64,000 bases of DNA from Cytobacillus massiliigabonensis. Lineage in GTDB: Bacteria > Bacillota > Bacilli > Bacillales > Cytobacillaceae. A program made the translations under genes and the position numbers. The notes below the pieces were generated by a model that worked only from the letters and a program-made list of their open reading frames with translations, was not told the DNA's origin and did not search any database. How positions within the stretch are numbered: the first letter of the stretch is position 1; each line of letters opens with the position of its first letter. The stretch covers positions 385,395 through 449,394 of the forward strand of contig NZ_LT904902.1 of assembly GCF_900199725.1 (NCBI RefSeq), in the 5' to 3' direction. Positions 47,766 through 63,570 of this stretch are shown here, piece by piece.

Positions 47766-49034
47766 CTAAACTGTAGTTGTTTCATCGATAACTTTTCCAG
47801 ATTGTTTGCTCTTTGAAACTTTAATTGGAGCTGTTTCTTTAATACCCAGAGAAAGGAGAAAAAAGACTGCAGCAGCCACACTTGCTACCCACAATGGGGA
47901 ATAAAGGCTGTATTTATCAGCAAGTACACCAGCTAGAACGGGACCAATCGTCCCTCCAATAATTTCGCCAGTCAGTACAATTGCAGCAATAGCAGTAGCT
48001 GCAAAGGCCCTTGAAACAGACTCAGATGGGATGATTGCCAGATAAAGTGGCTGCCCACCCATACCAGCAGTAAGGACAAATACTAAAAGTGCTAACACTA
48101 CAACATTTGAATGGAAAAAGGCAATGGCTAGTGGGAGAAAGATTGCAACAAATGTTGCTGGTATCATTACGGTTTTTCGTCCCAACTTATCCGATAAAAA
48201 AGGAATAAGTAACTGCCAGAAGAACATGCCAATCCCGAAAACTCCTAATATAATTCCATATTGGGATTCGTTATAATTGGATACGCCCGATAAAAACAGT
48301 GGCATAAAACTAGTGAAAGTTAAAAGGTACATCATATAAAATACAGCAATTAACATACTTAACCAAACATTACGGGTTTTAAATACTTTTTTATATTCAT
48401 TAAATGTAGGTTTTTGCCTTTTTTCACCTTTGCTCAATTGTGAATGTAGGATAGGTTCCCTCATATAAAACATTAAAATGACAGCGAGGATAATTCCTGG
48501 TATAGCCAAAGCAAAAAATGCATATCTCCAGTTAAATGAAATAGCGATAGCAACAACTAATATGGGAGCGATCGCGTTACCTAATAATGGTGCAGCACTT
48601 TGAATAAATCCCATATTGAAACCTCTTCTACTAGGAGTGGATTCAGCCATGATCGAGGATTGAATTAATGGAATAACCGGTCCTTCAGAGGCCCCCATCA
48701 ATAAACGAACCATTATCAGGGATCCTAAACCACCAATAACACCGGATGAAAATGTGGCAACAGAAAATATTAAAATAAAAATAACTAATGTTTTTTTCTT
48801 TTTACCAATAAAATCTGAGAGGCTTGCAAAAATAAGTGTAGATAACCCCCATGCAATGGATGTGGCGCCAACAATCATTCCCATTTGTGTATTGTTTAGT
48901 CCTAACTCTGGAGCAACAAATGGGAACAAATAAATGATGCTTAATCGATCCATAAAGACCAGGCCAAAAACTAAGAATAGAATAATTAAAATACCATTCT
49001 CATACCTAAAGAAAGATTGTTTTACTTTGTTCAT
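47766..49034 (-). CDS. MFS transporter, aromatic-acid/organic-anion symporter type
   Basis: 422 residues, 12 membrane helices, AAGGGGC before the ATG. MFS motif A-like segments are FASLSDFIGKKKK and PFLSDKLGRKTVM, with SIAWGLSTLIF and GASEGPVIPLIQSSIMAE in the N-terminal half. The MDR(L)-type first helix and EGP motif resemble anion:cation symporters (ACS/AAHS). Neighbouring catabolic enzymes suggest an aromatic or ring-cleavage acid as substrate. A stem-loop separates it from the enzyme genes, so it may have its own promoter. Confidence 0.88.
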   Translation of the reverse strand: MNKVKQSFFRYENGILIILFLVFGLVFMDRLSIIYLFPFVAPELGLNNTQMGMIVGATSIAWGLSTLIFASLSDFIGKKKKTLVIFILIFSVATFSSGVIGGLGSLIMVRLLMGASEGPVIPLIQSSIMAESTPSRRGFNMGFIQSAAPLLGNAIAPILVVAIAISFNWRYAFFALAIPGIILAVILMFYMREPILHSQLSKGEKRQKPTFNEYKKVFKTRNVWLSMLIAVFYMMYLLTFTSFMPLFLSGVSNYNESQYGIILGVFGIGMFFWQLLIPFLSDKLGRKTVMIPATFVAIFLPLAIAFFHSNVVVLALLVFVLTAGMGGQPLYLAIIPSESVSRAFAATAIAAIVLTGEIIGGTIGPVLAGVLADKYSLYSPLWVASVAAAVFFLLSLGIKETAPIKVSKSKQSGKVIDETTTV

Positions 49035-49134
49035 ACTTCTCTAGCCCCTTATTTTATATTATCGACAAAAATATCTTGATTTTTGAATATTCAGTTAAGT
49101 ATAAACATACTTTTTTACACACTTATCACATGCT

Positions 49135-49171
49135 AGGTGGTCTATAAAATCTAAATTATTATAGACCACCT
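49135..49171 (-). terminator. Stem-loop between cyclase and MFS genes
   Basis: AGGTGGTCTATA / TATAGACCACCT perfect 12-bp stem with a 13-base loop. No T tract on the minus strand, so it may attenuate or protect the 3' end rather than fully terminate. Confidence 0.5.
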
Positions 49172-49181
49172 TTAAAACTTT

Positions 49182-49952
49182 CTATATTCCTAGAAAAGCA
49201 ACTGCACGCGTCCATCCAGCACTCCCGCCCTTTATTTTTACGGGAAAAACTGAAACCTTAAATCCATAAGGCGGAAGCTGATCGAGATTGGCTAGTTTCT
49301 CAATTTGACAATATTCCCTTTCCTTTCCTATATAATGGGCAGCCCATAGGACTCCCGGACGTGGGTTTTCTTTAAAATCTGCTGCTTGTTTTTTCAATGG
49401 TGTATCCCATCCCCAACCATCTGTCCCCATCACTTTGATCCCTTGTTCAATCAACCATAGAGTTGCTTCAGCAGATACACCAACATGGATCTGTGCGTAA
49501 TTATCCTCGTATCGTTTTTTGTCTGCGTCACAGCGGATCATAACAATATCAAATGGCTTTAACTCATAATTAATCTCTATTAATTTCTGCTTTAAATCTG
49601 AAATTGTTACTTCATATGCAGGTGGCTTGTCTGTGAAATCTAGAACTATTCCATCACCATAGAACCATTCGAGGGGCATTTCATCAATTGTCCTTGAAGG
49701 TCTCCCTTCACTAGTCGGCCAGTAATGCCATGGTGCATCCACATGTGTACCCGCATGACCCGCTAGTGTGAGCTCTTCCCCCGCTAATCCTTTGCCTTCC
49801 GGAAAGTCTTCTGGATGAACGCCAAATAATTTAGCACCAAGCTCTGCTCCCTCTTCATGGGATTCATATCTAATCGAAAATGGAAGCGGATCCTTTAGTT
49901 CTTTTTCAATTGAAACACTTAAATCAACGATTCTTACTCCATCTTTGTTCAC
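49182..49952 (-). CDS. Cyclase-family (kynurenine formamidase-like) metal hydrolase
   Basis: About 257 residues from GTG 49952, which has AAAGGA nine bases upstream. The frame is open to 50012 but with no ribosome site. The metal motif LAGHAGTHVDAPWHYWP (HxGTHxDxPxH) is intact, with FDIVMIRCDADKKRYED and VMGTDGWGWDTP downstream. The family hydrolyses cyclic or formylated amides and some ring-cleavage lactones. Last enzyme gene of the sigma-54-linked set, nine bases after the ORF for a FAH-family enzyme. Confidence 0.9.
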   Translation of the reverse strand: MNKDGVRIVDLSVSIEKELKDPLPFSIRYESHEEGAELGAKLFGVHPEDFPEGKGLAGEELTLAGHAGTHVDAPWHYWPTSEGRPSRTIDEMPLEWFYGDGIVLDFTDKPPAYEVTISDLKQKLIEINYELKPFDIVMIRCDADKKRYEDNYAQIHVGVSAEATLWLIEQGIKVMGTDGWGWDTPLKKQAADFKENPRPGVLWAAHYIGKEREYCQIEKLANLDQLPPYGFKVSVFPVKIKGGSAGWTRAVAFLGI

Positions 49953-50020
49953 AAGTAAGCATCCTTTCTGTCGAATCAGTTGACTTGACCATAGTAGTGA
50001 TCCTTCTATCATTAGTTTTT

Positions 50021-50929
50021 TTAGACAATGGTATTACATAGTCTGCCTAAACCAGTAATCTCTAATTCTACTTCATCACCAGGTTCCAACCAGCTATGCA
50101 TTTCTGATCCTAACTCCATAATGCAGCCAAATCCAACGGTTCCGGAACCAATAAGATCCCCTGGATACAAGGTTACATCTTCTGATGCCCGTTCAATCAT
50201 TTGGCCAAAACTATAGTAAATATCTTTAAAGTTGCCGCTAGTTATAACCTCTCCGTTTACTTTTGCTGACATCTCTAAATCAAACCTGTCCCCTACCCTA
50301 TATGGTTCAAGCTCATCTTTTGTTACAAGATATGGCCCTATCGAGGTAGCAAAATCCTTTCCTTTTGCCGGTCCTAGCTGAACCTTCATTTCTTTCATTT
50401 GTAAATCCCTAGCAGACCAATCATTCAATATTGTATAACCGAATATATAATCTTCTGCTTCACTCGCTCTAATATTTTTTCCTTGTTTACCAATGACGCA
50501 TGCCATTTCTAATTCAAAGTCTAATCTTACACATCTTTTTGGACGGTGAACTTCTTGATTGGGCCCAATAATTGAGTTCTGATTTGAGAAATAAAAGATA
50601 GGCATTTCATACCATTCTTGTGGCATTAGATCCCCAGACCTTGCTGTTGCATTTTTTATATGTGTTTCAAATGCTACAAAGTCTCGAAACGAATTTGGGT
50701 TAGGCAGGGGTGCAACTAATTCAATTTCATCTAAACGAAAAGTTGGTTCCAATGAATTCCTAACTAATTGTTCAAGTATTGGTATGAATCTATCTTGATT
50801 TTCTAGCAACTCTCTAATACTTTCAGGTAAAGCACCTTTACTTGCCTCATTCATATCGATTACACCATTGTTCACTAACCAGCCTGATCTGATTTTCCCA
50901 AGAGGATTTCGAAATGTTGAAAATTTCAT
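50021..50929 (-). CDS. Fumarylacetoacetate hydrolase family protein
   Basis: 302 residues, AAAGGAGC before the ATG. FAH fold with the metal ligand ExE in RLDFELEMACVIGK, the GYTILNDWSARDLQ motif and YPGDLIGSGTVGFG. Members act late in meta-cleavage pathways as hydratases, decarboxylases or acylpyruvate hydrolases. In this set it should process the product released by the C-C hydrolase. Confidence 0.92.
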   Translation of the reverse strand: MKFSTFRNPLGKIRSGWLVNNGVIDMNEASKGALPESIRELLENQDRFIPILEQLVRNSLEPTFRLDEIELVAPLPNPNSFRDFVAFETHIKNATARSGDLMPQEWYEMPIFYFSNQNSIIGPNQEVHRPKRCVRLDFELEMACVIGKQGKNIRASEAEDYIFGYTILNDWSARDLQMKEMKVQLGPAKGKDFATSIGPYLVTKDELEPYRVGDRFDLEMSAKVNGEVITSGNFKDIYYSFGQMIERASEDVTLYPGDLIGSGTVGFGCIMELGSEMHSWLEPGDEVELEITGLGRLCNTIV

Positions 50930-50962
50930 TTATTCCAGCTCCTTTAATCCTGCCCTTCTATT

Positions 50963-51421
50963 TCAAATTAGTAATAAGGCAGCATAGACCTGTTTATCTA
51001 ATGCATCTGCTTTTTGTGGATTATACGTTTTTTCATAAATAGGCGTTTGCGTAATTTTCCCGCCCCAGAACATAGAATCAAACACAGCCTCAATCTGTAA
51101 TTCTAACTTTGATAAAGGCAAATGGACGCCTTCTATTTTTTCATTTAAGACATTAATCATTCCAGTAATTGAATAAACAGTTTCTAATCCAATCATCGAA
51201 AGTGTCACTTTTGGATTGTTTTTTATATTGGAAAAGGTTCTTGAATTATTCGTAATCGAAAATCTAATCGTTTTTTCATTGATCGCTGTAACCCAGGAAA
51301 TGGCACAAGTATTCGGACCATGACTTTCGTGATCAACAGTGCTCAAAAGTATGAGTGTATTAGAATTAATATGTTTGACTTGCTCCTCTGTCAGAGTTTG
51401 AGGAATCTTCTGCTCTAACAT
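50963..51421 (-). CDS. FMN-binding split-barrel (PNPOx-like) protein
   Basis: 152 residues. The pattern ILLSTVDHESHGPNTCAISWVTAINEKTIRFSITNNSRTFSNIKNNPKVTLSM is the pyridoxamine-5'-phosphate-oxidase-like barrel. It probably binds FMN. It lies between the hydroxylase/hydrolase and FAH genes, so it could reduce flavin for the hydroxylase. It lacks obvious HpaC-type reductase features, so that role is only inferred. Confidence 0.78.
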   Translation of the reverse strand: MLEQKIPQTLTEEQVKHINSNTLILLSTVDHESHGPNTCAISWVTAINEKTIRFSITNNSRTFSNIKNNPKVTLSMIGLETVYSITGMINVLNEKIEGVHLPLSKLELQIEAVFDSMFWGGKITQTPIYEKTYNPQKADALDKQVYAALLLI

Positions 51422-51495
51422 TTCTCTACCAACTTTCTAATTTAATATTGTCACATTTACAATAGGGTTTACTATTCAACAAAAAGTAAAAGATT

Positions 51496-52602
51496 TTAAG
51501 CATTAAGCTGTACCTTTAGCCAATCATACATAGAATAGGTTTCTGTCACATTATCAACCTGACAATGAGCTGATCCCGGACTGCTTTTTGAAACCACTTT
51601 TAACCATCTTGGACAGGTTAAGTCATTATATAGGTTGTATGCGTTTTCAACAGAAACCTGACGATCATCTTCTCCGTGTATAATATAGGTTGGCATACTT
51701 ATCTTTTCAGCTACCCCTCTTAAATTAAAACGGTCTAACCTTTTCCTCGCATCTTCCATATTGTCTGTTCCTATCACGTGCTGCAAAATTTTAGCTAATG
51801 GATGATTATCCGGACGTTTTGCCCAAACAGAATTATAATCATATACCGCACCCCAAAGTGCACATGCCTTAAACCTCGGTTCAAATGCTGCTGATCTTGC
51901 TGCCATATAGCCACCCATAGAAACAGCCATGATCCCTACACGTTCAGGGTCCACGTCAAGGTTTCCTATCGCCCAGTCATAGGCAGCCGTTCCTGCAACA
52001 TTATAATCATAACGGGAAGTAATATGATTAAGTCGCAATGCACCGCCTTGTCCTGGTCCATCTACAGCCAATAATGAGATACCGCGTTCATTTAATAATT
52101 GAGCTGGGCCAAAATATAGTTCTTCCGCTGTCGAATCAAGACCACCAAACATAATTACAAGTGGGCTTTCTTTCTTTCCAGGAACTGCAAAATAATATCC
52201 AGGCAAAAAGGAATTTTCAAATGGAATTTGAACAGCATTTGGCGGATTATCAAGCATCTCTGCACCTTTTCTAAAAGACTCCACTCCTTTTAAATAGGTT
52301 GGTATTTTTCTTGCATCATCAGGCTGCAGGAAAAACTCTGCTGTCCTAATATAGTTGGAAGCTCGTAAAAATGCTGCTCTAGCTGTTTCAATATTTTCAC
52401 TATCTAATGCTTCATTTGCAACTGTTAAAGTTCGGTTCCCGCTGTCCATCCATGCATGATGAAAACTATTCGTATCTCCTAGTGTTATATTATTAGCAGC
52501 TTCAAGTATTTCATTAACTTCTCCGCCTCCAAAATGAGCCTGACTAAACATCCTTACAATCTGATAAGACCACATATAATGTTCAGGAAAATAATGCCAC
52601 AT
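51496..52602 (-). CDS. Alpha/beta hydrolase with N-terminal helical domain, C-C hydrolase type
   Basis: 368 residues, TGGAGTGA before the ATG. A helical N-terminal region (about 1-120) precedes the hydrolase core: YYFAVPGKKESPLVIMFGGLDS, nucleophile GIMAVSMGGYMAAR, acid HGEDDRQVS and His GSAHCQ. The architecture matches the FrsA/2,6-dihydroxypseudooxynicotine hydrolase group that splits C-C bonds. In this set it is a candidate for hydrolysing the ring-cleavage product. Confidence 0.88.
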   Translation of the reverse strand: MWHYFPEHYMWSYQIVRMFSQAHFGGGEVNEILEAANNITLGDTNSFHHAWMDSGNRTLTVANEALDSENIETARAAFLRASNYIRTAEFFLQPDDARKIPTYLKGVESFRKGAEMLDNPPNAVQIPFENSFLPGYYFAVPGKKESPLVIMFGGLDSTAEELYFGPAQLLNERGISLLAVDGPGQGGALRLNHITSRYDYNVAGTAAYDWAIGNLDVDPERVGIMAVSMGGYMAARSAAFEPRFKACALWGAVYDYNSVWAKRPDNHPLAKILQHVIGTDNMEDARKRLDRFNLRGVAEKISMPTYIIHGEDDRQVSVENAYNLYNDLTCPRWLKVVSKSSPGSAHCQVDNVTETYSMYDWLKVQLNA

Positions 52603-52626
52603 TTAAAAATCACTCCATATCTTTTT

Positions 52627-53823
52627 TCATATAAGAATATTCTTTGGATCTAACGGAACTCCTAATTCCACCCTTCCAAAGTTCTCCCCAGCCATATCAA
52701 AATTCAGTGCAGCGTGCATGGACATGATTTGTGTATCCCTCCAAAAGCGCTGCATCGGATTATGACTGTAAATTGAACTTGCACCACTGTTTTCAAAGAG
52801 TCGTCCCGTTACTTTGGAACCTACCTTGGCTACATAAGCAAAATTTCGAGCAAGCAATACTTTTTTCTCAGCAGTTAAATGTTCAGTTGTCCGTAACTGT
52901 TCTATAGATTGATGCAGAATCGCATCTGCTGCATCCAATTCTACTGAACACTCCGACAAGCGAATTTGTTGATGTGTAAACTGTGTAACTTGATTTTGAG
53001 TATAGATGGCAACTTTCTTCTTACTCGTTTCCTTCCATAAATCATAAGCACCAAGTGCAGCCCCTAAAACAGCAGATGCGAGGAAATGTCCAATGACCGT
53101 CATTACCGGGAGTTTATACATTGGTGCCTTATTCACTATCGTCCCTGGAATATCATTAAATTTAGACCAACCTACCAAATCTACTATTCTATAATTCGGT
53201 ACAAAAGCATCTACAATTGTAATTGTCTTACTTCCGCTCCCCTCAATCCCCGCAACGTGCCAATCATCAATAATTTGGTAATCCTCCCTTGGAACTAATA
53301 ACATTAGATGTTTCGGAGGCATACCCGCTTTTTCAGGTGGTTGAAAAGCCCCTACCATTGCCCATTCACTGTGGTCAACACCAGATGAAAAACTCCAGCT
53401 TCCACTTAATCTCACCCCATCTTCCAAATGATCCATTTTACCAATTGGTGCGAATGCTGAAGTGATTAGAGCATTAGGATTTTTAGACCACACATCTTCT
53501 TGGGCTTTTTCCGGCCAACCAGCCAACATAAATGAATGAAGTCCTAATAATGTGAAACACCATCCAGAAGACGGATCAGCCTTAGCAATTTCAATGGTTG
53601 TATCTACTAATGAATCAAAAAATAGTTCGTGACCTCCCCATTTCTTAGGCTGTAATAGTCGAATCAGGCCCGAATCTACAATTTCTTGAATAGTTTCTTT
53701 TGGCTGCTGACGAAGTTCCTCAGCTTGTTTTCCTCGTTCCCTAATGATTGTTGCAAGAGACTTTGCTCTCTTTATTGCCTCTACATATGAAATTTGTTCA
53801 ACAACTCGATGAACATTTGACAT
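52627..53823 (-). CDS. Acyl-CoA-dehydrogenase-fold flavin monooxygenase (HsaA-like)
   Basis: About 398 residues from ATG 53823; GAGGAGG seven bases upstream (nearby ATG codons are alternatives). The three-part ACAD fold is visible: a helical N-terminus, the beta domain with KADPSSGWCFTLLG and LSGSWSFSSGVDHSEWAMVGA, and the C-terminal helical bundle ending GENFGRVELG. The class D hydroxylases (HsaA, HpaB-like) use reduced flavin from a partner to hydroxylate phenols to catechols. It sits between the extradiol dioxygenase and the C-C hydrolase genes, the hsaA/C/D logic. Confidence 0.88.
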   Translation of the reverse strand: MSNVHRVVEQISYVEAIKRAKSLATIIRERGKQAEELRQQPKETIQEIVDSGLIRLLQPKKWGGHELFFDSLVDTTIEIAKADPSSGWCFTLLGLHSFMLAGWPEKAQEDVWSKNPNALITSAFAPIGKMDHLEDGVRLSGSWSFSSGVDHSEWAMVGAFQPPEKAGMPPKHLMLLVPREDYQIIDDWHVAGIEGSGSKTITIVDAFVPNYRIVDLVGWSKFNDIPGTIVNKAPMYKLPVMTVIGHFLASAVLGAALGAYDLWKETSKKKVAIYTQNQVTQFTHQQIRLSECSVELDAADAILHQSIEQLRTTEHLTAEKKVLLARNFAYVAKVGSKVTGRLFENSGASSIYSHNPMQRFWRDTQIMSMHAALNFDMAGENFGRVELGVPLDPKNILI

Positions 53824-53860
53824 CATCTTTCCTCCTCTCATGTATTAGGACATCAATCCG

Positions 53861-54796
53861 CTATTTTAAAATTTCACCCTTAGTTCCAAACGGGTTTTCT
53901 CTTCCCCAAGCATCATTTGGATTTTCCGATAATTTCCACTTAAATGGACCAAAATCAGGCGCAAATACTAGATGAGCCCCAGCATAAATTTCAAATCTGT
54001 TTCCGCCTGGCTCATCAACATAAAAGAAAAAGCCTTCTGCTAATGCATGACGAGTAGGTCCGCCCATCGCTAATTCATAGCCACTTTCGATAATATGGTC
54101 AGCTGCTAATAGTACTTCCTCACGACTTTCAACCGCATAACATACATGATTGACTGCTCCGGGTTTTCCTTTTGGGTTACCGATGATTGCAATATCATGC
54201 GATAAATTACTTACAGAGAGCCACGCCCCAACTTCAATATCATAATTATCGGTAAAAATCCCCTCATGATAGTTAAAACCTAACTTCTGATAAAATTCAC
54301 GGCATGCTTTTGTATTTCTGCTATGAACGGTTACATGGTCAAGACGCCTAGGTGAAATTCCTCTTCCCGGGTTTTTCTGCGGACGATTCTTCCACTTGCT
54401 CCGAAGATTTTCTGGTGCATCATATAAGTCAACATCCCAAAACACTTCTTCTAAATGACCATCTGGTGAATAAAACTGATAGGCTGCCCCATGTCCTAAA
54501 TCGCCTTCTGTCCATCCTTTTCCTTGACCCGTCCCCTCAATAAAAAGGGCTGCATCCTTTAATGCCTCCGCAGAATCTGCCCGCCATCCGATATGACCTA
54601 ATCCCGCTTCTTTTCCTTCAGTAATTTTCAAGCTATGATGGTGAAATTCTCCCCAGGCTCGGAGATAGACAGATTGCCCTTGTCGGCCAGATTCTTCTAA
54701 ACCAATAACTTCTTTATAAAACTTAACGGTTTCTTCTGGTTTAGGACTTAATAGTTCAACGTGAGAAAGCTGGGATAAATAATGTGGATTTTTCAT
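53861..54796 (-). CDS. Type I extradiol dioxygenase (catechol 2,3-dioxygenase fold)
   Basis: 311 residues, TTAGGAGGAA before the ATG. Two VOC domains. The second holds the iron ligands H154 (RLDHVTVHS), H217 (AVNHVCYAV) and E269 (NRFEIYAG), with the extradiol signature running to there. It opens catechol rings next to the hydroxyls. First gene of the set, 67 bp past a -24/-12 promoter. Confidence 0.93.
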   Translation of the reverse strand: MKNPHYLSQLSHVELLSPKPEETVKFYKEVIGLEESGRQGQSVYLRAWGEFHHHSLKITEGKEAGLGHIGWRADSAEALKDAALFIEGTGQGKGWTEGDLGHGAAYQFYSPDGHLEEVFWDVDLYDAPENLRSKWKNRPQKNPGRGISPRRLDHVTVHSRNTKACREFYQKLGFNYHEGIFTDNYDIEVGAWLSVSNLSHDIAIIGNPKGKPGAVNHVCYAVESREEVLLAADHIIESGYELAMGGPTRHALAEGFFFYVDEPGGNRFEIYAGAHLVFAPDFGPFKWKLSENPNDAWGRENPFGTKGEILK

Positions 54797-54862
54797 GATA
54801 ATTCCTCCTAAAGTTTCTTCTTTTCAAATTGCAGAAATTTGTTAGGCTTCCACTCTTTATAA

Positions 54863-54879
54863 TGCAAGTCTCATGCCAA
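54863..54879 (-). promoter_or_regulatory. Sigma-54 (-24/-12) promoter of the catabolic set
   Basis: On the minus strand TTGGCATGAGACTTGCA carries TGGCA and TTGCA with the exact 6-bp spacing. It lies 67 bp before the extradiol dioxygenase start and opposite a sigma-54 activator gene. Confidence 0.88.
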
Positions 54880-54998
54880 TTTGACTTTATAAAATAGAAA
54901 AATACCGTTTTCATAATGAAAACGCTGTCAATAATGGAAAACATTTTTTATTAAACCTTTTTTCACAATGTATATATCAATGATTCACAAAACAAAAG

Positions 54999-55062
54999 TG
55001 TCCGAAAATCATGCAATTAAAATCGTACACTTCTCGCTAAATTGTCCATAAATCATACAATT
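54999..55062. promoter_or_regulatory. Two 20-bp direct repeats, probable activator binding sites
   Basis: TGTCCGAAAATCATGCAATT at 54999 and TGTCCATAAATCATACAATT at 55043 differ at three positions and start 44 bp apart (about four helical turns). They lie 120-180 bp upstream of the -24 element, a usual enhancer distance, and just before the activator gene. Confidence 0.72.
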
Positions 55063-55154
55063 TATAATATTTAAAATATTGTGTTATAATTAGAATGAAC
55101 TAATACTGTGGTATGACTATTCACGAAAATGATAAAAGTACTAGGGGTGTTTTT

Positions 55155-56894
55155 GTGAGGGAAATAACGGATAACCATTTAATTTCTAACCTGGCAGAAA
55201 TAACAAATAGAGCTATTTTTGAACGGAATCGGCTGATTCAAAAATTATTTATTTTTAAACATGACAAATCCTTTGTATGTCTCTTTGACTTGAAAAATAA
55301 TCAGGTTAAAAATCATATACAAGGAATGGATTGGATAAAAAAAATACAATTTCAGAATCATGTCACCTCATACCCCCACCAAGGAAATCAAAACGATTGG
55401 ATTTATTCTGCACCAATAGCAACAGACAGAGAAGATAAGTATTTCATCGTCTGTACATATTCCGAAAATAACAATCCCGAAATTTTACTTTTACTTACCT
55501 TACTTTCAGATTACTCTAGCTTCCGTATTGCCTCACAACGAAATACAGAGGAAATCTTCCTTAAAAGTGAATATCAGAAAAAAATTGTAGACCTTGTCGA
55601 AGAAGGATATCTCAGTATCAATAAATTTGGCGATATTACATTTCTTAATCGTCTAGGTGCAGAAATTTTACAAACAGATGCTGAAGAAGCTTTAGGTACC
55701 CACTTAAGCAAGGTAGTCGACTTCCATGATGAACTTCTTAACGTTCTTGTTACTCAAAAAGGATTTGTTAATAAGGAAATACTAAGGACGACTAGGAAAG
55801 GTCAAATTCATATCATGATATCAGCTGTACCTATTATTGATGATCGTAAGCAATTGGTAGGAGCTGTGCTTCCCTTTAGGGAAATAAGAACGGTTCGCAA
55901 TTTGGCAGCCGACTATGTGCAGAAAAAGGTGAACTATCACTTTGATGATATTTTATTTAAAAGTGATAGTATGACCCATCTTATTAAACTTGCGAAAGCG
56001 GGTGCAAATACTGATTCAAGTATTTTAATTGAAGGAGAAAGTGGCACAGGGAAAGAATTAATTGCACAAGGTATTCATTATCATAGTCATAGAAGAAACG
56101 GTCCTTTTATCGTAATTGATTGTTCGTCCATTCCAAGAGATCTGATTGAGAGTGAATTGTTTGGATATGTTGATGGAGCTTTCACTGGTGCTCGAAAAGG
56201 TGGAAAGTTGGGGAAGTTTGAACTTTCTAATGATGGAACTGTCTTTTTAGATGAACTTGGTGAAATGCCATTAGAGATGCAGTCTAAATTACTTAGAGTC
56301 ATTCAAAATCGTACGATTACACGTGTAGGGGGAAATAAGGAAATACCGATTAATTTTCGAATCATCGCAGCTACAAATCGGAATTTAATGGAAGAAGTTA
56401 AAAAAGGAAACTTTCGGCTTGATCTCTTTTATCGGTTGAATGTATTGCACCTTACCGTCCCTCCTTTAAGAGATAGACCGGAGGATATTCCTATTATGGT
56501 TCAAATGTTTATCGAAAAAACGTCAAAACGAATTAATAAACCTTCCCCGGATATAAGTGAAGATGCAATGAACTTATTAGAGAATTATTCATGGCATGGG
56601 AATGTAAGAGAACTTGAAAATGTGATCGAGCGAGCTGTACTGTTGTCGGCAGATACGATTGAAATTTCCCATCTGCCCCAACATTTAATCGAGGATTCGC
56701 ACTCTAATTTAAATAAGATAAGAACGGTCGAGGTTACCCGTCTTCCTCAAATGCCATTAGAAGAGGTTGAACATCAAGTAATTATTGGTGTTCTTTCTGA
56801 AACAAATTTTAATAAAAGCCGTGCTGCTAAGAAATTAGGTATATCAAGGTCAACATTATACGATAAGATGCGAAAATATAACATTTTAGAATAA
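55155..56894 (+). CDS. Sigma-54-dependent transcriptional activator (PAS, AAA+, Fis)
   Basis: About 579 residues from GTG 55155, which has AGGGGTG upstream; an ATG at 55113 lacks a ribosome site. A sensory N-terminus of about 130 residues is followed by a PAS domain (IVDLVEEGYLSINKFGDITFLNRLGAEIL). The AAA+ domain has Walker A GESGTGKE, the sigma-54 contact loop GAFTGA, Walker B TVFLDELGE and an arginine finger near FRLDLFYRLN. A Fis-type HTH (NKSRAAKKLGISRSTLYDKMRKY) ends it. It should activate the divergent catabolic genes on sensing an aromatic substrate or intermediate. Confidence 0.94.
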   Translation: MREITDNHLISNLAEITNRAIFERNRLIQKLFIFKHDKSFVCLFDLKNNQVKNHIQGMDWIKKIQFQNHVTSYPHQGNQNDWIYSAPIATDREDKYFIVCTYSENNNPEILLLLTLLSDYSSFRIASQRNTEEIFLKSEYQKKIVDLVEEGYLSINKFGDITFLNRLGAEILQTDAEEALGTHLSKVVDFHDELLNVLVTQKGFVNKEILRTTRKGQIHIMISAVPIIDDRKQLVGAVLPFREIRTVRNLAADYVQKKVNYHFDDILFKSDSMTHLIKLAKAGANTDSSILIEGESGTGKELIAQGIHYHSHRRNGPFIVIDCSSIPRDLIESELFGYVDGAFTGARKGGKLGKFELSNDGTVFLDELGEMPLEMQSKLLRVIQNRTITRVGGNKEIPINFRIIAATNRNLMEEVKKGNFRLDLFYRLNVLHLTVPPLRDRPEDIPIMVQMFIEKTSKRINKPSPDISEDAMNLLENYSWHGNVRELENVIERAVLLSADTIEISHLPQHLIEDSHSNLNKIRTVEVTRLPQMPLEEVEHQVIIGVLSETNFNKSRAAKKLGISRSTLYDKMRKYNILE

Positions 56895-57049
56895 AGTGAA
56901 ACTTCAATCAGTGGGGGTTTTTCTTTATTCCCCACTGATTGTTAGTTGAACTAATCGGGCATTTACGGGCTGTTGATCCCCCACCTAGAATTTTTTGTTC
57001 CCTCATCTTCTTGAAGTGGGGCTCTTACAGCCCGTTTATCTGCGATAAA
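56891..57049 (+). repeat. Structured dispersed repeat, copy B (159 bp)
   Basis: Partner of copy A. The first stem is longer here: CAATCAGTGGGG / CCCCACTGATTG, 12 bp perfect. The second is ACGGGCTGT...CCCCCAC paired with GTGGGG...ACAGCCCGT across a small internal loop. It starts at the stop codon of the activator gene. No T tract, so it is not a simple terminator. Confidence 0.88.
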
Positions 57050-57053
57050 GCAT

Positions 57054-57086
57054 AAAACCACTAAAGATAACGCCTTTAGTGGTTTT
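57054..57086. terminator. Bidirectional terminator
   Basis: Perfect 13-bp stem AAAACCACTAAAG / CTTTAGTGGTTTT with a 7-base loop and six T on the plus strand. Lies between the convergent activator and Rieske beta-subunit genes. Confidence 0.88.
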
Positions 57087-57094
57087 TTACAAGT

Positions 57095-57619
57095 TTACAA
57101 AAACATACTCATATTCATTGTTGTAATCACAGCCTGATCAGGAAAAATAGTTCTTTCAGCAATTTTCCATTCATTATTTTCCTTGCGGATGATGTCGTTG
57201 CGTTCACCAAACATTTCTTCTATATCATGCGTTGATCCTCTGCTTCTTTTAAATAAAAAATAACTTCTAACTTTGTACTCATTCGGATCGCCTGTAGGTT
57301 CAATCATAACATTCGAAATAAAGTGACGCTGTCTTGTTGCTGGGTTTTCAACCCAGGCTGATTTCGTGTATAACCGGTTCACTCTAGTTTTCAATGAAAT
57401 TTTTGTTTCATCAAAAAATGCCATATCCGGAGAAATATTATCGGCCCCTACCCCCTCCACTGTCTCCCTTAAAGGCATACGATAAATTAAATTCTCCGAC
57501 AATAATTCAAGCCATTCCTTATACTTTCGGTTATCTAAATAATATGCCTCCTGATAAAGCAAGTTAGCAAGTTCATAGTGCAACTCAGGAGTTACCTGTA
57601 TCGATAATCCTGAACTCAT
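57095..57619 (-). CDS. Ring-hydroxylating dioxygenase beta subunit
   Basis: 174 residues, overlapping the alpha gene by four bases (ATGA). The NTF2-like fold shows ELANLLYQEAYYLDNRKYKEWLELLSENLIYRMPLRET and the C-terminal NEWKIAERTIFPDQAVITT. The beta subunit is structural and shapes the active-site pocket of alpha3-beta3 Rieske dioxygenases such as biphenyl, benzoate or cumene types. Distal gene of the TRAP-dioxygenase set. Confidence 0.93.
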   Translation of the reverse strand: MSSGLSIQVTPELHYELANLLYQEAYYLDNRKYKEWLELLSENLIYRMPLRETVEGVGADNISPDMAFFDETKISLKTRVNRLYTKSAWVENPATRQRHFISNVMIEPTGDPNEYKVRSYFLFKRSRGSTHDIEEMFGERNDIIRKENNEWKIAERTIFPDQAVITTMNMSMFL

Positions 57620-58968
57620 TTCACATTCTCCTTTACAAAAAGTTCTTTAGTGATGAGCTCTAGCCAGTTTTCATGCATACTTCTTGCAATTGCATCAATA
57701 TAAGTGGTTGGATAAGCAGTTCCTGGTCCAGGAAAATGTTCATCAGGCTCAACCCGATTCATGCCCATTAAGTAATTGCTGACACTATTATAATTAAGTT
57801 CTTTGTCACGCATCATTAACCCTTTACTGACTTCAACAATCCGGGCCCAGTTCTCAGTATCATCCTGCTCCAGTGTGCCCGTAGGACCAAATGAACCTAA
57901 ATAGCCTTTATATGCTGCTTCTTTGTATTCCTCAGGAGCAACCTTATCAATCATAAACCAGCACCATACTTCAACCTTTTCTGGACCTATTGGTCTCCAC
58001 ATTCGAAAATTCAAGTAGTTATGCAAATGCCCTTCAGTACCGTGGATCGGACTGACAAATGATAAATTCGGGTATACGCCCCCAACAAAAACCGTTACTT
58101 TTGACAGTATCTCATCCTGCTCTGATGTTAAATTTTTCTTAAACATTGGCCACATCGATTCAGGTGTCCCTTGGTAAGGTACCCTCGCTTTTCCTGTCTT
58201 GGATGTGATGACATTGATTCCATGACCATTTCCCAAGACAACTTGGTGACCGTATCCTGCATATAAAGGATCCTCCGGACTAATACCCATTTCAACAGTT
58301 GAACGATGAGTGGTCTGGACATGGTATGGATCAGCTGCAAAATTTTCTGCGGTTGCTTTCCAGTTTGCTTTTGCCACCCAGCGCTGTGGAAGACCTCTTA
58401 CTTCCATTCCACCATCACTTCTGCCTAGCAATATATCAAAATACCATTTCATTTCACCAAGGTACTCTTCTAAAGGTATTGCATTCGGATCAAGATTACC
58501 AAAAATCATCCCTTGATAGATTTCAACCTGAGGAATTTTCCGCAAACCCCATTCTGATTTATCCATTTCTTCACCATATACTTTGTTACCCGCAACAATC
58601 CCTACTAAATCACCATCCAGATTATAACTCCATCCGTGGTATGGACATGTAAACGTTTTTTTATTTCCCCGATCAGCAGTACATAATTGTGTTCCCCGAT
58701 GTGTACAGGAATTTAGATAGGCTTTAATTTCCCCTTCTCGATTTTTAACAAGTAAGACCGGATCATTCGCCATCCATCTTGTCACATAGCTTCCAGGATC
58801 CTTTAACTCGGTTTCATGTCCAAGAAATTGCCATGTATGGCCGAAAATTTTTTCTATCTCTAATTCGTAAATATCTGGATCTGTTAATACCCATTGGGGC
58901 AAGAGACCTTGCTCCATTTTTTCCTTTAATAGTTGAAAGGCTTTTTCATCTATTGTCCTTTTTATCAT
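57616..58968 (-). CDS. Rieske ring-hydroxylating dioxygenase alpha subunit
   Basis: 450 residues, GGGAGGG before the ATG. Rieske cluster ligands C88-x-H90 (SCTHRG) and C108-x2-H111 (CPYHGWSY). The mononuclear iron site includes H216 and H221 in ADPYHVQTTHRS, with the bridging D213. The enzyme adds oxygen to an aromatic ring to give a cis-dihydrodiol and needs ferredoxin and reductase partners; neither is in the window. It follows dctM by 42 bp without a terminator, so uptake and attack are probably co-expressed. Confidence 0.95.
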   Translation of the reverse strand: MIKRTIDEKAFQLLKEKMEQGLLPQWVLTDPDIYELEIEKIFGHTWQFLGHETELKDPGSYVTRWMANDPVLLVKNREGEIKAYLNSCTHRGTQLCTADRGNKKTFTCPYHGWSYNLDGDLVGIVAGNKVYGEEMDKSEWGLRKIPQVEIYQGMIFGNLDPNAIPLEEYLGEMKWYFDILLGRSDGGMEVRGLPQRWVAKANWKATAENFAADPYHVQTTHRSTVEMGISPEDPLYAGYGHQVVLGNGHGINVITSKTGKARVPYQGTPESMWPMFKKNLTSEQDEILSKVTVFVGGVYPNLSFVSPIHGTEGHLHNYLNFRMWRPIGPEKVEVWCWFMIDKVAPEEYKEAAYKGYLGSFGPTGTLEQDDTENWARIVEVSKGLMMRDKELNYNSVSNYLMGMNRVEPDEHFPGPGTAYPTTYIDAIARSMHENWLELITKELFVKENVK

Positions 58969-59010
58969 TTTTGGATAACCCTCCCAAAGAATTGAAATGA
59001 GCTTAGATGT

Positions 59011-60315
59011 CTATTTTATTAAACTCGGTAAAAAAGTAACGATGTCTGGAAAGATGATCAGAATGATTGTAAAAATGGCCATTGTTATAATTGCTGGTAT
59101 AACCCCTTTAAATATCTTTTCAATTGGCACATCTTTTACGACTCCACTAATAATATAAACACTTAATCCTAAAGGTGGTGTAAGGACTCCGATATTAATG
59201 AGCATAATCATAATAATTCCGAACCATAAACCGTCAAAGCCTAACTGAGTAATTAATGGATAAACAATTGGCAACGTAAGTGTCATAATCGCAATTCCTT
59301 CAAGAAACATTCCAAGTATAAAGTAAACGATCAGAATTAAGGCTAATATTAGATAAGGAGAGACATTCAATGAACCAACAACATTCGTTAAATACATCGG
59401 AATTTGGCTTAGCGCCAAAAACTTACCAAATAAGGCTGCTCCAATTAGGATTAAAAATAACATGACAGTTAATCGGAGCGTTTCGTCCAAAGAAGAAATT
59501 AAACCTTTAAAGTTCAATCGCTTTGTAATAAGTGTCAAAATAAAGGCGCCAATCGCTCCGATTCCGCCAGCTTCACTTGGAGTGAAAACACCGAAATAAA
59601 TACCGCCAATACTAATTGCAAATATAAGCAAGAATGGCCATACACCTTTTAAAGATGCGAATCGATCACTGATTGAATTTGCTTCTTTTTTTGTTGGAGC
59701 AATTTCAGGATTCAAACGGACTTGAATATTAATCATTGCCATAAATAACAATGTCATAATAATCCCAGGAATTAGACCACCAATTAATAAAGGGCCAATC
59801 GGTTCAGATGTTAGAGCACCATATATAATTAAGAGTACACTTGGAGGGATTAAAACACCTAATGTACCTCCAGCAGCAACTGATGCTGTTGAAAAGGTTG
59901 TTTTATATTTGAATTGATTCATTTCAGGAATACAAATTCTAGCTAATGTTGCAGTTGTTGCATTAGAGGATCCCGAAATTGCGGAAAAGATGGAAGCAGC
60001 ACCAACTGTAGCAATCGCAAGTCCCCCTCGAAAATGGCCAATCCATTTATCAACTGCATTAAATAAATCTTTTCCTAATCCAGTATTTGACATAAACATG
60101 CCCATTAATATAAACATTGGAATCACACTTAAAGAGTAGCTATTGCTAGTGCCAAATGCTGATGAACCTAATTGCGAAAATGCAACACTCCAATCAGTTA
60201 GCCACGATACACCTAGAAACCCTACTAAAAATAAAGAAAGCCCAACAGAAACCCTTAATAAGATAAGAACCAACAGCAATACAATACCAATAACTCCTAT
60301 CAGCTCAGGACTCAT
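59011..60315 (-). CDS. dctM: TRAP transporter large membrane subunit DctM
   Basis: 434 residues with about 12 membrane helices. Typical segments are SNTGLGKDLFNAVDKWIGHFRGGLAIATVGAASIFSAISGSSNATTATLARI and GVLIPPSVLLIIYG. It is the channel subunit of a TRAP system that imports organic acids using a sodium or proton gradient. Starts 11 bases inside the end of dctQ. Confidence 0.95.
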   Translation of the reverse strand: MSPELIGVIGIVLLLVLILLRVSVGLSLFLVGFLGVSWLTDWSVAFSQLGSSAFGTSNSYSLSVIPMFILMGMFMSNTGLGKDLFNAVDKWIGHFRGGLAIATVGAASIFSAISGSSNATTATLARICIPEMNQFKYKTTFSTASVAAGGTLGVLIPPSVLLIIYGALTSEPIGPLLIGGLIPGIIMTLLFMAMINIQVRLNPEIAPTKKEANSISDRFASLKGVWPFLLIFAISIGGIYFGVFTPSEAGGIGAIGAFILTLITKRLNFKGLISSLDETLRLTVMLFLILIGAALFGKFLALSQIPMYLTNVVGSLNVSPYLILALILIVYFILGMFLEGIAIMTLTLPIVYPLITQLGFDGLWFGIIMIMLINIGVLTPPLGLSVYIISGVVKDVPIEKIFKGVIPAIITMAIFTIILIIFPDIVTFLPSLIK

Positions 60316-60877
60316 TCTTTTTCACCGCCTTAAGAAAAGACTTAAGTGAATCTAATAAAAAGGTAAGAGTAAACGATAATGCCCCAACTACCGTTAAGGC
60401 GATAAAAATATATAAAGGCAATCCTAAATCACCGCTTAATTCATTTCCTTGCATCGTCCTTTTTGTAAATTCGAATAATTGCCATGTTGTGAATGACATT
60501 AGAATGAATAATAGAAATGATGCAATTGCATATAGCCCATCTTGAATTTTTAAAGGCATTTTATTCGTTAAAAAATCAATTTCAATATGATCTTTCTTAA
60601 TTTGCGCTGATCCAAGACTAAAAAATATCATTATGGCCAGTGCTAAACCGGTTAATTCGTAAGTTCCAGTAATTGGTTTATTAAAAAAGTATCTTCCTAC
60701 TACATCTGCTGTTGTTAAAAACATCAATAAAAATAAGATTATGCTAGAAATTTTATGCAGTACGTTATTAAATGAATAGGTTATTCTCTCTAATAGATTT
60801 ATTAGTTTGTGAGAAAAGGAAACTTCGTTGGGAGTAATAACTCCCAACTTTACCTCCTGCTGCACTTCCTGTTTCAT
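60305..60877 (-). CDS. dctQ: TRAP transporter small membrane subunit DctQ
   Basis: 190 residues, GAGGTG before the ATG. Four membrane helices with the family pattern FLTTADVVGRYFFNKPITGTYELTGLALAIMIFFSLG and QIKKDHIEIDFL. The N-terminal 30 residues are cytoplasmic and longer than usual. Partner of DctM. Confidence 0.93.
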   Translation of the reverse strand: MKQEVQQEVKLGVITPNEVSFSHKLINLLERITYSFNNVLHKISSIILFLLMFLTTADVVGRYFFNKPITGTYELTGLALAIMIFFSLGSAQIKKDHIEIDFLTNKMPLKIQDGLYAIASFLLFILMSFTTWQLFEFTKRTMQGNELSGDLGLPLYIFIALTVVGALSFTLTFLLDSLKSFLKAVKKNES

Positions 60878-60901
60878 AGTGAAACACCTCGCAATTTATG
60901 T

Positions 60902-61963
60902 TCACTTGCTTTCAATTAATTTAACCGTCTCATCGTATATCTTCTGTCCATCTATTCCTGCCTTTTCCATTTCAGCTAGCCAGTTTTCCGTTACTCCCTT
61001 TGACACATCCTTGAACTTCTGCAGGTCTGAATCAGATAAAGAAATAAATTCCGTTCCCCCTGCTTTCGCTTCTTCCTCGGCTAAAACCTTTTGACGATCA
61101 AAAGCATCTCCTGCTTTCTCTGCCATTGGGATCCCAATTAATTCTTCAATTTTTTCCTGGTCGGATTTTGAAATCTTATTCCAGCTGTTTTTATTCATCG
61201 CAACATAGTAGATACTTGTGTTAAAATCGCCAAGCGTTACATAATCAACTACATCAAATAGGTTGAAGTCCTTGATAGCTGCTACAGGCAGCACGCCCCC
61301 ATCAATAACCCCTTTTTGCATTGCATCATAAATTTCTGGTGCTGGTAATGAAACAGGTGTAGCTCCCCACGACTTAATCATTTCGCCTGCTTCTACGGAT
61401 GGAGTTCTTAGTTTCAATCCCTTTACATCTTCAAATGTTCTGACCGCTTTCCCTTTTGTAATAATTGCATATGGGTCAGCAGCATGAACCCATAAAAGTT
61501 TCACATCGTCATATTCCTTCTGGATTTCAGGAAATGTATCATACAATTTTTGCGCAACAACACTTAGCTCTGCCCCATTCCCGTCAGTCAAGAACGGCAA
61601 TTGGAGAACTGAGTGGATAGGAAATTTACCGGCATTATATCCTTGCAGCCCCCATCCCGCATCCATGATACCGGTTACAATATTGTCATAAGTTTCTTTC
61701 GGTCCGCCTAGTGCCCCTCCAGGATACATTTCAAACTTCACTCTTCCCTCTGTTACTTTAGCAACTTCTTCAGTAAATGGTCGCTTTGCCCATTTATCCT
61801 GGACATGATCTGGTGAATTCATATGCCCCATTTTAAATTCAAGCGTCTCTCCTTTTGTATCCCCGCCCTTTTCTCCACCAGTACTATTTGAGCATGCTGT
61901 CAAAATAACTAGCATAAGGGCAATTACACTTACAAAGGATAATTTCAAACTTTTTTTATTCAT
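60902..61963 (-). CDS. dctP: TRAP transporter substrate-binding lipoprotein DctP
   Basis: 353 residues; GGGGGA suits ATG 61963. Lipobox VILTACSNS, then the DctP fold with FKMGHMNSPDHVQDKWAKRPFTEEV, KGLKLRTPSVEAGEMIKSWGATPVSLPAPEIYDAMQKGVIDGG. The RTP...E segment holds the Arg that binds a substrate carboxylate in this family, so an organic acid is expected. First gene of the TRAP-Rieske set. Confidence 0.94.
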   Translation of the reverse strand: MNKKSLKLSFVSVIALMLVILTACSNSTGGEKGGDTKGETLEFKMGHMNSPDHVQDKWAKRPFTEEVAKVTEGRVKFEMYPGGALGGPKETYDNIVTGIMDAGWGLQGYNAGKFPIHSVLQLPFLTDGNGAELSVVAQKLYDTFPEIQKEYDDVKLLWVHAADPYAIITKGKAVRTFEDVKGLKLRTPSVEAGEMIKSWGATPVSLPAPEIYDAMQKGVIDGGVLPVAAIKDFNLFDVVDYVTLGDFNTSIYYVAMNKNSWNKISKSDQEKIEELIGIPMAEKAGDAFDRQKVLAEEEAKAGGTEFISLSDSDLQKFKDVSKGVTENWLAEMEKAGIDGQKIYDETVKLIESK

Positions 61964-62008
61964 CTTCATATCCCCCTATTATTTTTTATAGTAATTGAAT
62001 CAACGATT

Positions 62009-62023
62009 GTAAAGCGCTTTCAT
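62009..62023 (-). promoter_or_regulatory. Candidate CcpA cre site upstream of dctP
   Basis: ATGAAAGCGCTTTACA on the minus strand matches TGAAAGCGCTTTCA at 12 of 14 positions and lies about 50 bp before the dctP start. It suggests carbon catabolite repression. Confidence 0.5.
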
Positions 62024-62078
62024 ATTAGTTCAAAAAACTATTGTCTATGATTCAATCACCCTCTCAATTAATAAAAAA

Positions 62079-62091
62079 ACGAATATTTCGT
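62079..62091. promoter_or_regulatory. Short perfect palindrome upstream of dctP
   Basis: ACGAA-TAT-TTCGT, in the promoter region of the TRAP-Rieske set. It could be an operator of an unseen regulator. Otherwise 61964-62269 holds no gene. Confidence 0.35.
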
Positions 62092-62221
62092 ATTTTCTAA
62101 TTATCATATTATTTTAAATAAATGAGCCCAACAACCCTATAGTTTCACTATGCGCAACAAACCCAAAACTTTTTCTTGTTTTTTATCATTTTAAATTGGT
62201 ATGAAGGAAAAATCGCCAAAA

Positions 62222-62254: not shown

Positions 62255-62269
62255 CGAGTATTTTTGAGT

Positions 62270-63508
<1,239 letters not shown>

Positions 63509-63514
63509 CTATTA

Positions 63515-63560: not shown

Positions 63561-63570
63561 TTTTTTGGTA

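What the first reader, a model, noticed from the sequence alone, without database searches (positions are those of the whole stretch)
49182..54796. Six-enzyme meta-cleavage set of unrecognised substrate
The order extradiol dioxygenase, ACAD-fold hydroxylase, helical-domain alpha/beta hydrolase, split-barrel flavoprotein, FAH-family enzyme and cyclase-family hydrolase does not match a named pathway that I know. A logical route is phenol to catechol, ring opening, C-C hydrolysis and processing of the oxo-acid. The cyclase step hints at a lactone, amide or N-containing ring. This is the best candidate here for an undescribed pathway.
Basis: inference. Interest (0 to 1): 0.75.

Follow-up and report, generated by a model that had tools for sequence, protein, structure and literature searches.

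The report
Flavonoid ring-opening operon, new hydroxylase variant
A bacterium of the Bacillus group carries a set of six enzymes that most likely breaks open the first ring of plant flavonoids, much like a pathway known from other bacteria but with the enzymes of the first two steps replaced, which would extend flavonoid use to a further large group of bacteria.

Summary
The six genes are real and look intact, in the order and place stated. They look like one sigma-54-controlled operon with a transporter. The core (extradiol dioxygenase, DHPON-hydrolase-like C-C hydrolase, FAH enzyme, cyclase-family hydrolase) recurs in 12 of 12 loci found with the dioxygenase alone, and on Bacteroidota and Deinococcus plasmids. 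In 24 of 28 unique loci the hydroxylase is a class A flavin monooxygenase; in three (window, Cohnella, Paenibacillus) it is the ACAD-type oxygenase, each time with the split-barrel flavoprotein. Neighbours in some relatives (C-glycoside deglycosidase, glycosidases, pobA/pra or pcaHG, CoA-transferase and thiolase) point to a plant polyphenol split into a hydroxybenzoate and acetoacetate. The closest described systems are the fde (naringenin) and ifc (isoflavone) A-ring meta-cleavage clusters of Pseudomonadota. I propose flavone 8-hydroxylation, cleavage at C8-C8a, release of oxaloacetate by the hydrolase, pyranone opening by the cyclase-family enzyme, and cleavage of the aroylacetoacetate by the FAH enzyme. 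Fold families and conserved residues are shown; substrate and order of steps are inferred. It is not an unknown pathway but a new variant of a known kind.

The parts
53861..54796 (-). EDO: C23O-like VOC extradiol dioxygenase (311 aa), first gene; proposed metal ligands H154, H217, E269, second sphere H200, H250, Y259
   Evidence: (TIGR03211 267.8 bits, cut-off 320.2)
52627..53841 (-). ACADox: acyl-CoA-dehydrogenase-fold flavin-dependent hydroxylase (404 aa), HsaA/HPAH-C2-like; H102, S128, H376 align with C2 H120, S146, H396 (their roles are recalled)
51496..52602 (-). ABH: alpha/beta hydrolase like 2,6-dihydroxypseudooxynicotine (DHPON) hydrolase; proposed triad S228, D313, H346
50963..51421 (-). 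Split-barrel flavoprotein (152 aa), proposed flavin reductase partner of ACADox
   Evidence: with ACADox in 3 of 3 loci, in 0 of the 25 others
50021..50929 (-). FAH-family enzyme (302 aa), proposed aroylacetoacetate hydrolase; H90, D137, E139, E141 conserved
49182..50012 (-). Cyclase-family (isatin-hydrolase-like) metal hydrolase, proposed pyranone lactonase; H86, H90, D92, H96
47766..49034 (-). MFS transporter, probable last gene of the operon; a relative (45% or more) lies in the locus in 16 of 28 cases, window included
54864..54878 (-). sigma-54 (-24/-12) promoter-like site TGGCATGAGACTTGC, 82 bases before the EDO start codon
   Evidence: the same strict motif stands within 400 bases before EDO in L006 and L089 and in no other of the 27 unique loci. 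The window as a whole has no more such sites (45) than shuffles (40.9), so position, not number, is the argument
55113..56894 (+). Divergent sigma-54-dependent activator (PAS, AAA+, Fis-type HTH), proposed operon regulator
   Evidence: a relative lies in 9 of 28 loci, window included
62270..63496 (-). pobA, 4-hydroxybenzoate 3-monooxygenase: proposed entry of the B-ring product into the ring-cleavage genes that continue beyond the window
   Evidence: (TIGR02360 550.6 bits, cut-off 538.7)

Best explanation
An inducible operon for aerobic A-ring meta-cleavage of a plant flavonoid, most likely a 5,7-dihydroxyflavone with a 4'-hydroxyl (apigenin type). Proposed steps: (1) ACADox, fed with reduced flavin by the split-barrel protein, hydroxylates C8 to give a 7,8-catechol. 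(2) EDO cleaves C8-C8a, leaving a 3-acyl-4-hydroxy-6-aryl-2-pyranone. (3) ABH removes the acyl group by C-C hydrolysis, as DHPON hydrolase does on an acyl-dihydroxypyridine, releasing oxaloacetate and 4-hydroxy-6-aryl-2-pyranone. (4) The cyclase-family hydrolase opens this lactone to aroylacetoacetate. (5) The FAH enzyme cleaves the 1,3-diketone, as fumarylacetoacetase does, into 4-hydroxybenzoate and acetoacetate. The atoms balance: C15 = C4 + C7 + C4. PobA and the genes behind it take 4-hydroxybenzoate; CoA-transferase and thiolase take acetoacetate. Shown: fold families, conserved residues, conserved clustering, two interchangeable hydroxylase types, neighbours. Inferred: substrate, regiochemistry, order of steps 3 to 5, flavin partnership, regulation.
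For: Conserved core: 12 of 12 loci found with EDO alone; of 15 family loci fetched for ABH, EDO in 15, cyclase in 14, FAH in 12. Hydroxylase swap: FMO in 24, ACADox with the split-barrel gene in 3, neither in 1 of 28 unique loci, never both; an ACADox/split-barrel pair also occurs without the rest in 2 of 5 further ACADox loci (L108, L109). Likeness to a described flavonoid cluster: ifc has an FAD monooxygenase that 8-hydroxylates daidzein, a VOC dioxygenase, a DHPON-hydrolase-like protein and the NMR-identified intermediate 2-hydroxy-5-(4-hydroxyphenyl)-4H-pyran-4-one, the isoflavone counterpart of my pyranone (PMC11069340). Polyphenol context: C-glycoside deglycosidase (PF19906) in 11 of 18 family genomes with ABH and 4 of 175 without, and directly before the set in Deinococcus; GH1 or GH3 genes beside the two Bacteroidota sets. 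Products: pobA in the window, L003-L005 and, apparently broken, L013; pcaHG in Hymenobacter; a 3-oxoacid CoA-transferase gene in L006 and L013 and a relative in two pieces in L084; thiolase in L006 and, in two pieces, L013, the L006 one nearer acetyl-CoA acetyltransferase (568 bits) than PcaF (390). FAH shares its proposed catalytic His and acidic residues with two annotated fumarylacetoacetases (31% and 30% identity).
Against: No substrate was tested. EDO is nearer a generic C23O (47% to that of a Methylobacterium plasmid) than the dioxygenases of two fde/ifc-like clusters (27% over 168 residues, 24% over 267). IfcA, IfcB, FdeC and FdeE sequences were not at hand, so the link to fde/ifc goes through L043 and L046, which I judged fde/ifc-like by gene content only. 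Disrupting the ABH-like gene of ifc did not affect daidzein removal, and cupins, absent here, act on the ifc pyranone. FAH scores best against HpaG (125 bits), fumarylacetoacetase third (104, cut-off 375). In the printed alignment H346 of ABH stands one column away from the His of DHPON hydrolase. The own genome has no PF19906. C-glycoside deglycosidases also act on xanthone and anthraquinone glycosides. PF19906 genes lie 190 kb away from ABH in one genome and on another contig in one, and all 11 double positives are one genus. The extra dehydrogenase genes of some relatives are not explained.
Confidence: 0.6

Rival explanations
1. The same enzyme logic acts on another plant polyketide-type phenol (xanthone, chromone, coumarin, acylphloroglucinol or anthraquinone aglycone), not on a flavonoid.
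For: C-glycoside deglycosidases accept flavonoid, xanthone and anthraquinone C-glycosides (PMC8563793, passages); the DHPON-type hydrolase would also suit other acyl-substituted electron-rich rings.
Against: The described fde and ifc clusters act on flavonoids (PMC11069340, PMC8552027); aromatic-acid genes (pobA and ring-cleavage genes, pcaHG) beside several loci suit a flavonoid B-ring.
Confidence: 0.2
2. A simple phenol or phenylpropanoid meta pathway (HPA, HPP or catechol type), the FAH enzyme being a hydratase or decarboxylase.
For: ACADox is related to 4-hydroxyphenylacetate hydroxylase and EDO to catechol 2,3-dioxygenase; FAH scores best against HpaG.
Against: All are below the curated cut-offs (ACADox 268 of 650 for HPAH; EDO 268 of 320 for C23O, 170 of 321 for HpaD; FAH 125 of 276 for HpaG). 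ABH is nearest to DHPON hydrolase among solved structures, the cyclase has no place there, and no aldolase or semialdehyde dehydrogenase lies in the operon, although both lie behind pobA.
Confidence: 0.12
3. A secosteroid (hsaA/C/D-like) ring-cleavage set.
For: ACADox scores best against HsaA (312 bits; 2rfq, 3afe).
Against: Below the HsaA cut-off of 450; cyclase and FAH unexplained; neighbours tested in relatives include sugar and hydroxybenzoate genes; 24 of 28 loci use a class A monooxygenase instead. Steroid genes were not searched for in the genome.
Confidence: 0.03

Closest known systems
ifc isoflavone catabolism cluster, Variovorax sp. V35 (PMC11069340)
   Same: A-ring hydroxylation, VOC extradiol dioxygenase and a DHPON-hydrolase-like protein in one cluster; a 2-hydroxy-4-pyranone intermediate like the one I propose
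   Different: Class A FMO IfcA instead of the ACAD-type enzyme; dioxygenase probably of another VOC branch (IfcB itself was not compared); cupins IfcD1/D2 absent here; isoflavone specific; its authors report IfcA homologues from Proteobacteria only
fde naringenin operon, Herbaspirillum seropedicae SmR1 (passages of PMC8552027, PMC11303751, PMC9422121; the 2016 primary paper is not held)
   Same: C8 hydroxylation then A-ring fission; fde-like plasmid cluster L043 shares cyclase (44%), ABH (32%) and FAH (27%) with the window
   Different: FdeE plus Rieske carrier FdeD as hydroxylase; no Rieske carrier or FMO in the window operon
2,6-dihydroxypseudooxynicotine hydrolase (2jbw), nicotine degradation
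   Same: Fold family, nucleophile and acid of the triad, presumed acyl C-C hydrolysis
   Different: Distant (94 bits); different pathway and substrate
HsaA / p-hydroxyphenylacetate hydroxylase C2 and partner reductases
   Same: ACAD-fold oxygenase in one operon with a small flavoprotein; active-site His and Ser positions kept
   Different: Below the cut-offs of both; partner is a PNPOx-type split barrel (PF01613 Flavin_Reduct 21.3 bits, cut-off 27)
PurABC / DgpABC / CarABC C-glycoside deglycosylation (PMC12724307, PMC8563793, passages)
   Same: CGD beta-subunit genes (PF19906) lie near the core set in several relatives
   Different: An upstream step; not found in the window's own genome

Membership tests
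fde/ifc-type flavonoid A-ring meta-cleavage cluster | class A FAD monooxygenase as flavonoid 8-hydroxylase | tested here: not met
   Window 44-64 kb has the ACAD-type oxygenase and no FMO of that family (38% or more); 24 of 28 loci have the FMO
fde/ifc-type flavonoid A-ring meta-cleavage cluster | FdeC/IfcB-type VOC dioxygenase | tested here: inconclusive
   Window EDO is VOC but only 27% and 24% identical to the dioxygenases of the fde/ifc-like L043 and L046; IfcB and FdeC sequences not at hand
fde/ifc-type flavonoid A-ring meta-cleavage cluster | DHPON-hydrolase-like alpha/beta hydrolase, with cyclase and FAH enzyme, in the cluster | tested here: met
   Present in window and in L043, L045, L046. 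That cyclase and FAH belong to ifc/fde proper was not checked
fde/ifc-type flavonoid A-ring meta-cleavage cluster | cupin IfcD acting on the pyranone | tested here: not met
   No cupin among the 15 genes of 47766-63999 (Pfam on 13; pobA by NCBIfam; LigB-type gene by Pfam); the other ORFs of 60 aa or more there overlap these genes or the promoter region. Cupins elsewhere in the genome were not searched for
fde/ifc-type flavonoid A-ring meta-cleavage cluster | degrades a flavonoid | not testable with these tools
   Needs growth or enzyme assays
catechol 2,3-dioxygenase (TIGR03211) | curated score | tested here: not met
   267.8 bits, cut-off 320.2
type I extradiol dioxygenase | His-His-Glu metal site and His/Tyr second sphere | tested here: met
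   H154, H217, E269, H200, H250, Y259 invariant in 28 rows; aligned with solved C23O-type enzymes; their roles are recalled
HsaA (NF045629) / HPAH oxygenase (NF045920) | curated scores | tested here: not met
   312.1 of 450 and 268.2 of 650 bits
two-component flavin-dependent monooxygenase | cognate flavin reductase gene | tested here: inconclusive
   Split-barrel gene accompanies ACADox in 3 of 3 loci and is in 0 of 25 others; model fits FMN-binding split barrels (best 2q9k, Z 15.2) and also a styrene monooxygenase reductase (Z 11.0, rank 44), but mean pLDDT is only 63.5
DHPON hydrolase | nucleophile Ser and Asp of the triad | tested here: met
   S228 and D313 align with Ser and Asp of 2jbw and are invariant in 28 rows
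DHPON hydrolase | His of the triad | tested here: inconclusive
   H346 is invariant in 28 rows but one column off the His in the printed alignment with 2jbw
fumarylacetoacetase (TIGR01266) | curated score | tested here: not met
   103.8 of 375.3 bits
fumarylacetoacetase-like hydrolase | catalytic His and metal-binding acidic residues | tested here: met
   H90, D137, E139, E141, D170, K191 shared with two annotated fahA; roles recalled, and other FAH-family enzymes may share them
4-hydroxybenzoate 3-monooxygenase (TIGR02360) | curated score | tested here: met
   550.6 bits, cut-off 538.7

The most novel reading that the evidence does not exclude
A route for aerobic flavonoid A-ring cleavage in Bacillota in which a two-component, acyl-CoA-dehydrogenase-fold hydroxylase with a split-barrel reductase replaces the class A 8-hydroxylase, a C23O-lineage enzyme opens the ring, and a fumarylacetoacetase-like aroylacetoacetate hydrolase ends a complete conversion of a C15 flavone to oxaloacetate, acetoacetate and a hydroxybenzoate. 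The logic is shared, with interchangeable hydroxylases, among Bacillota, Bacteroidota, Deinococcota and Pseudomonadota.
Probability: 0.42. Interest if true: 0.7.

Novelty: new variant of a known kind. Interest (0 to 1): 0.56.

Why it matters
Flavonoids are abundant plant chemicals that shape root microbiomes, and the A-ring-cleaving gene sets that I found described (fde, ifc) come from Pseudomonadota. This would give Bacillota a defined gene set, explain the unresolved lower steps (pyranone to central metabolites) with ordinary enzymes, offer a new type of flavonoid hydroxylase, and make flavonoid and C-glycoside use predictable from genomes. Every step has a mass that can be looked for.

Tried and rejected
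FAH structure: the AlphaFold2 model failed (mean pLDDT 48), so no fold search was made for it. Wider sampling: EDO relatives at 43-50% in 11 of 397 other Bacilli genomes were not followed as members; ACADox at E <= 1e-100 was found in the own genome alone among 397 of the order, own included; in the family of G418, 5 of 39 genomes have ACADox at 41-46%, with the split-barrel gene in 2 of these 5 loci and EDO, ABH, FAH or cyclase in none of the 11-17 kb stretches fetched.

Of 11 plasmid regions fetched for neighbourhood (L036-L046), three were kept in the tally (L036, L037, L045), two served as fde/ifc-like comparisons (L043, L046) and six were dropped because they lack the full set (L038-L042, L044). 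Three loci were dropped as duplicates. Of the 17 other genomes with ABH, 15 were fetched; G496 and G500 were not. L005 has a gene that clusters with CGDB but had no NCBIfam match, was not run against Pfam, and is not counted; by similarity to the Pfam-confirmed gene of L009 or by Pfam, 5 of 28 loci hold CGDB (L009-L012, L045).

The sigma-54 motif was looked for only within 400 bases upstream of EDO and ABH, so loci whose first gene is the FMO were not fairly tested; L014 has an activator but no strict motif upstream of EDO. The two AU tests used 18 rows each and groups named after the tree was seen. The Fisher test ignores relatedness. The own-genome search for PF19906 had no positive control; one search supplied one in relatives.

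The ring-hydroxylating dioxygenase at 57095-58968 was considered as the entry hydroxylase: possible, but the activator gene lies between it and the core (as does a weak terminator-like site; such sites are about as frequent as in shuffles, 11 against 7.7), and no ferredoxin or reductase gene was recognised among the genes of 47766-63999. Secosteroid, HPA and catechol readings were set back on curated cut-offs.

Full report
OBSERVATION. Gaps between them are 8 to 74 bases; an MFS gene follows 147 bases on. A sigma-54 activator gene lies divergently upstream (55113-56894), and a strict -24/-12 site (54864-54878, minus strand) stands 82 bases before the first gene. Over the whole window such sites, with up to two mismatches, are no more frequent than in shuffles (45 against 40.9). 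But among 28 unique loci (27 others, plus the window) the strict motif occurs within 400 bases upstream of EDO in three: the window, L006 and L089. All three carry a sigma-54 activator; 9 of the 28 loci do.

RELATIVES. A search with the dioxygenase alone gave 12 loci, in Metabacillus, Neobacillus, Robertmurraya, Sporosarcina, Cohnella, Paenibacillus and unclassified Bacillus; all 12 have ABH, FAH and cyclase beside it. In the window's genus none of the other 35 genomes has a close match; the best-scoring one is 32% identical. In the family 18 of 193 genomes, own included, have ABH at E <= 1e-100; 15 of the 17 others were fetched, with EDO in 15, cyclase in 14 and FAH in 12. Plasmids of Hymenobacter and Emticicia carry EDO, ABH, FAH and cyclase with an FMO, and a GH1 or GH3 gene, and a Deinococcus plasmid has the set directly behind C-glycoside deglycosidase genes.

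HYDROXYLASE SWAP. Among 28 unique loci, 24 have a class A FMO, three (window, L006, L012) have ACADox with the split-barrel protein, one (L089) has neither but has ring-hydroxylating dioxygenase genes; none has both. An ACADox/split-barrel pair also occurs without the core in two further genomes (L108, L109). L012 has an FAD synthetase gene next to the split-barrel gene. The window operon is a mosaic: its ABH groups with six FMO-type loci (87-90% identity, support 100/99), while its EDO is 59-61% identical to theirs and has no well-supported sister. With 18 rows, AU tests reject the window's EDO with those six (p 9e-5) and its ABH with the two other ACADox loci (p 1e-5).

LINK TO KNOWN SYSTEMS. 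The ifc cluster of Variovorax has an FAD monooxygenase that makes 8-hydroxydaidzein, a VOC dioxygenase, a DHPON-hydrolase-like protein, and the NMR-identified intermediate 2-hydroxy-5-(4-hydroxyphenyl)-4H-pyran-4-one (PMC11069340: abstract, passages, and sections 16 and 17 read). The gene that makes this intermediate was left open there; I propose the hydrolase. The fde operon starts with FdeE and the Rieske carrier FdeD (PMC8552027, passages). The Burkholderia plasmid cluster L043 has FMO, Rieske protein, VOC protein, ABH, cyclase, cupin and FAH; its FMO is 41% identical to the FMO of L003 and its cyclase 44% to that of the window, but its dioxygenase is only 27% identical to EDO over 168 residues. 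So the window works like fde/ifc but fails two tested features (FMO, cupin).

MECHANISM. The proposed route is given under Best explanation. Step 3 rests on the DHPON hydrolase likeness and on the ifc pyranone; step 4 on the isatin-hydrolase likeness; step 5 on residues shared with fumarylacetoacetases and on CoA-transferase genes in three loci (L006, L013, and in two pieces L084) and thiolase in two (L006, L013). The own genome has two adjacent pairs of CoA-transferase genes. The B-ring product explains pobA (TIGR02360 above cut-off) and the genes behind it, beyond the window: a LigB dioxygenase, hydratase/decarboxylase, aldolase, acetaldehyde dehydrogenase, semialdehyde dehydrogenase, IclR regulator and amidohydrolase. 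The name pra, after the protocatechuate 2,3-cleavage pathway, is recalled, and the LigB enzyme's substrate was not tested. Formulae and masses were worked out by hand.

POLYPHENOL CONTEXT. PF19906 is found in 15 of 193 family genomes: 11 of the 18 with ABH, 4 of the 175 without (Fisher p 1.4e-10, not corrected for relatedness; all 11 are one genus). The nearest copy lies 5.6 to 47 kb from ABH in nine, 190 kb in one, and on another contig in one. The own genome has none.

LIMITS. Nothing shows the substrate. FAH scores best against HpaG. The ifc ABH mutant still removed daidzein, which says nothing on later steps. Literature searches (listings, with passages of nine papers read) showed no assignment of this cluster in Bacillota; the library holds open-licence papers only, and the 2016 primary fde paper was not held. 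Verdict: a new variant of a known kind, with a testable scheme.

Noticed in passing
57095-61969: Ring-hydroxylating dioxygenase beta and alpha subunits (HcaF/HcaE-like, alpha 317 of 830 bits) with a TRAP transporter, with no ferredoxin or reductase gene recognised nearby. L089 has a comparable set (RHD, SDR, TRAP) next to EDO and ABH, and Rhodococcus plasmid L042 has a Rieske gene near an ABH relative.
   Followed up: partly
62270-63999 and L034:1-9157: Ring-cleavage genes behind pobA (LigB dioxygenase, hydratase/decarboxylase, aldolase, acetaldehyde dehydrogenase, semialdehyde dehydrogenase, IclR, amidohydrolase) continuing past the window's end.
   Followed up: partly
49182-54796: Mosaic operon: ABH is 87-90% identical to six FMO-type loci while EDO is 59-61% identical to the same loci.
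   Followed up: yes
L012:8463-9443: An FAD synthetase gene directly before the split-barrel flavoprotein gene in Paenibacillus, which would suit a system that needs free flavin.
   Followed up: no
L036:11159-13199, L037:11557-13747, L012:13363-20306: Histidinol-dehydrogenase-like protein, SDRs and an ABM-domain protein in the Bacteroidota and Paenibacillus versions: extra steps that my scheme does not explain.
   Followed up: no
L108, L109: ACADox (46%) and split-barrel (60%) gene pairs without the core genes in two genomes of another family (f37).
   Followed up: partly
L013:16737-19816: pobA relative in two overlapping pieces covering only residues 4-179 of 408, apparently broken, followed by thiolase in two pieces and CoA-transferase genes; full-length pobA relatives exist in L003-L005.
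   Followed up: no
L077-L080, L082: Two sigma-54 activator relatives (46-48%) side by side upstream of the FMO in five loci.
   Followed up: no
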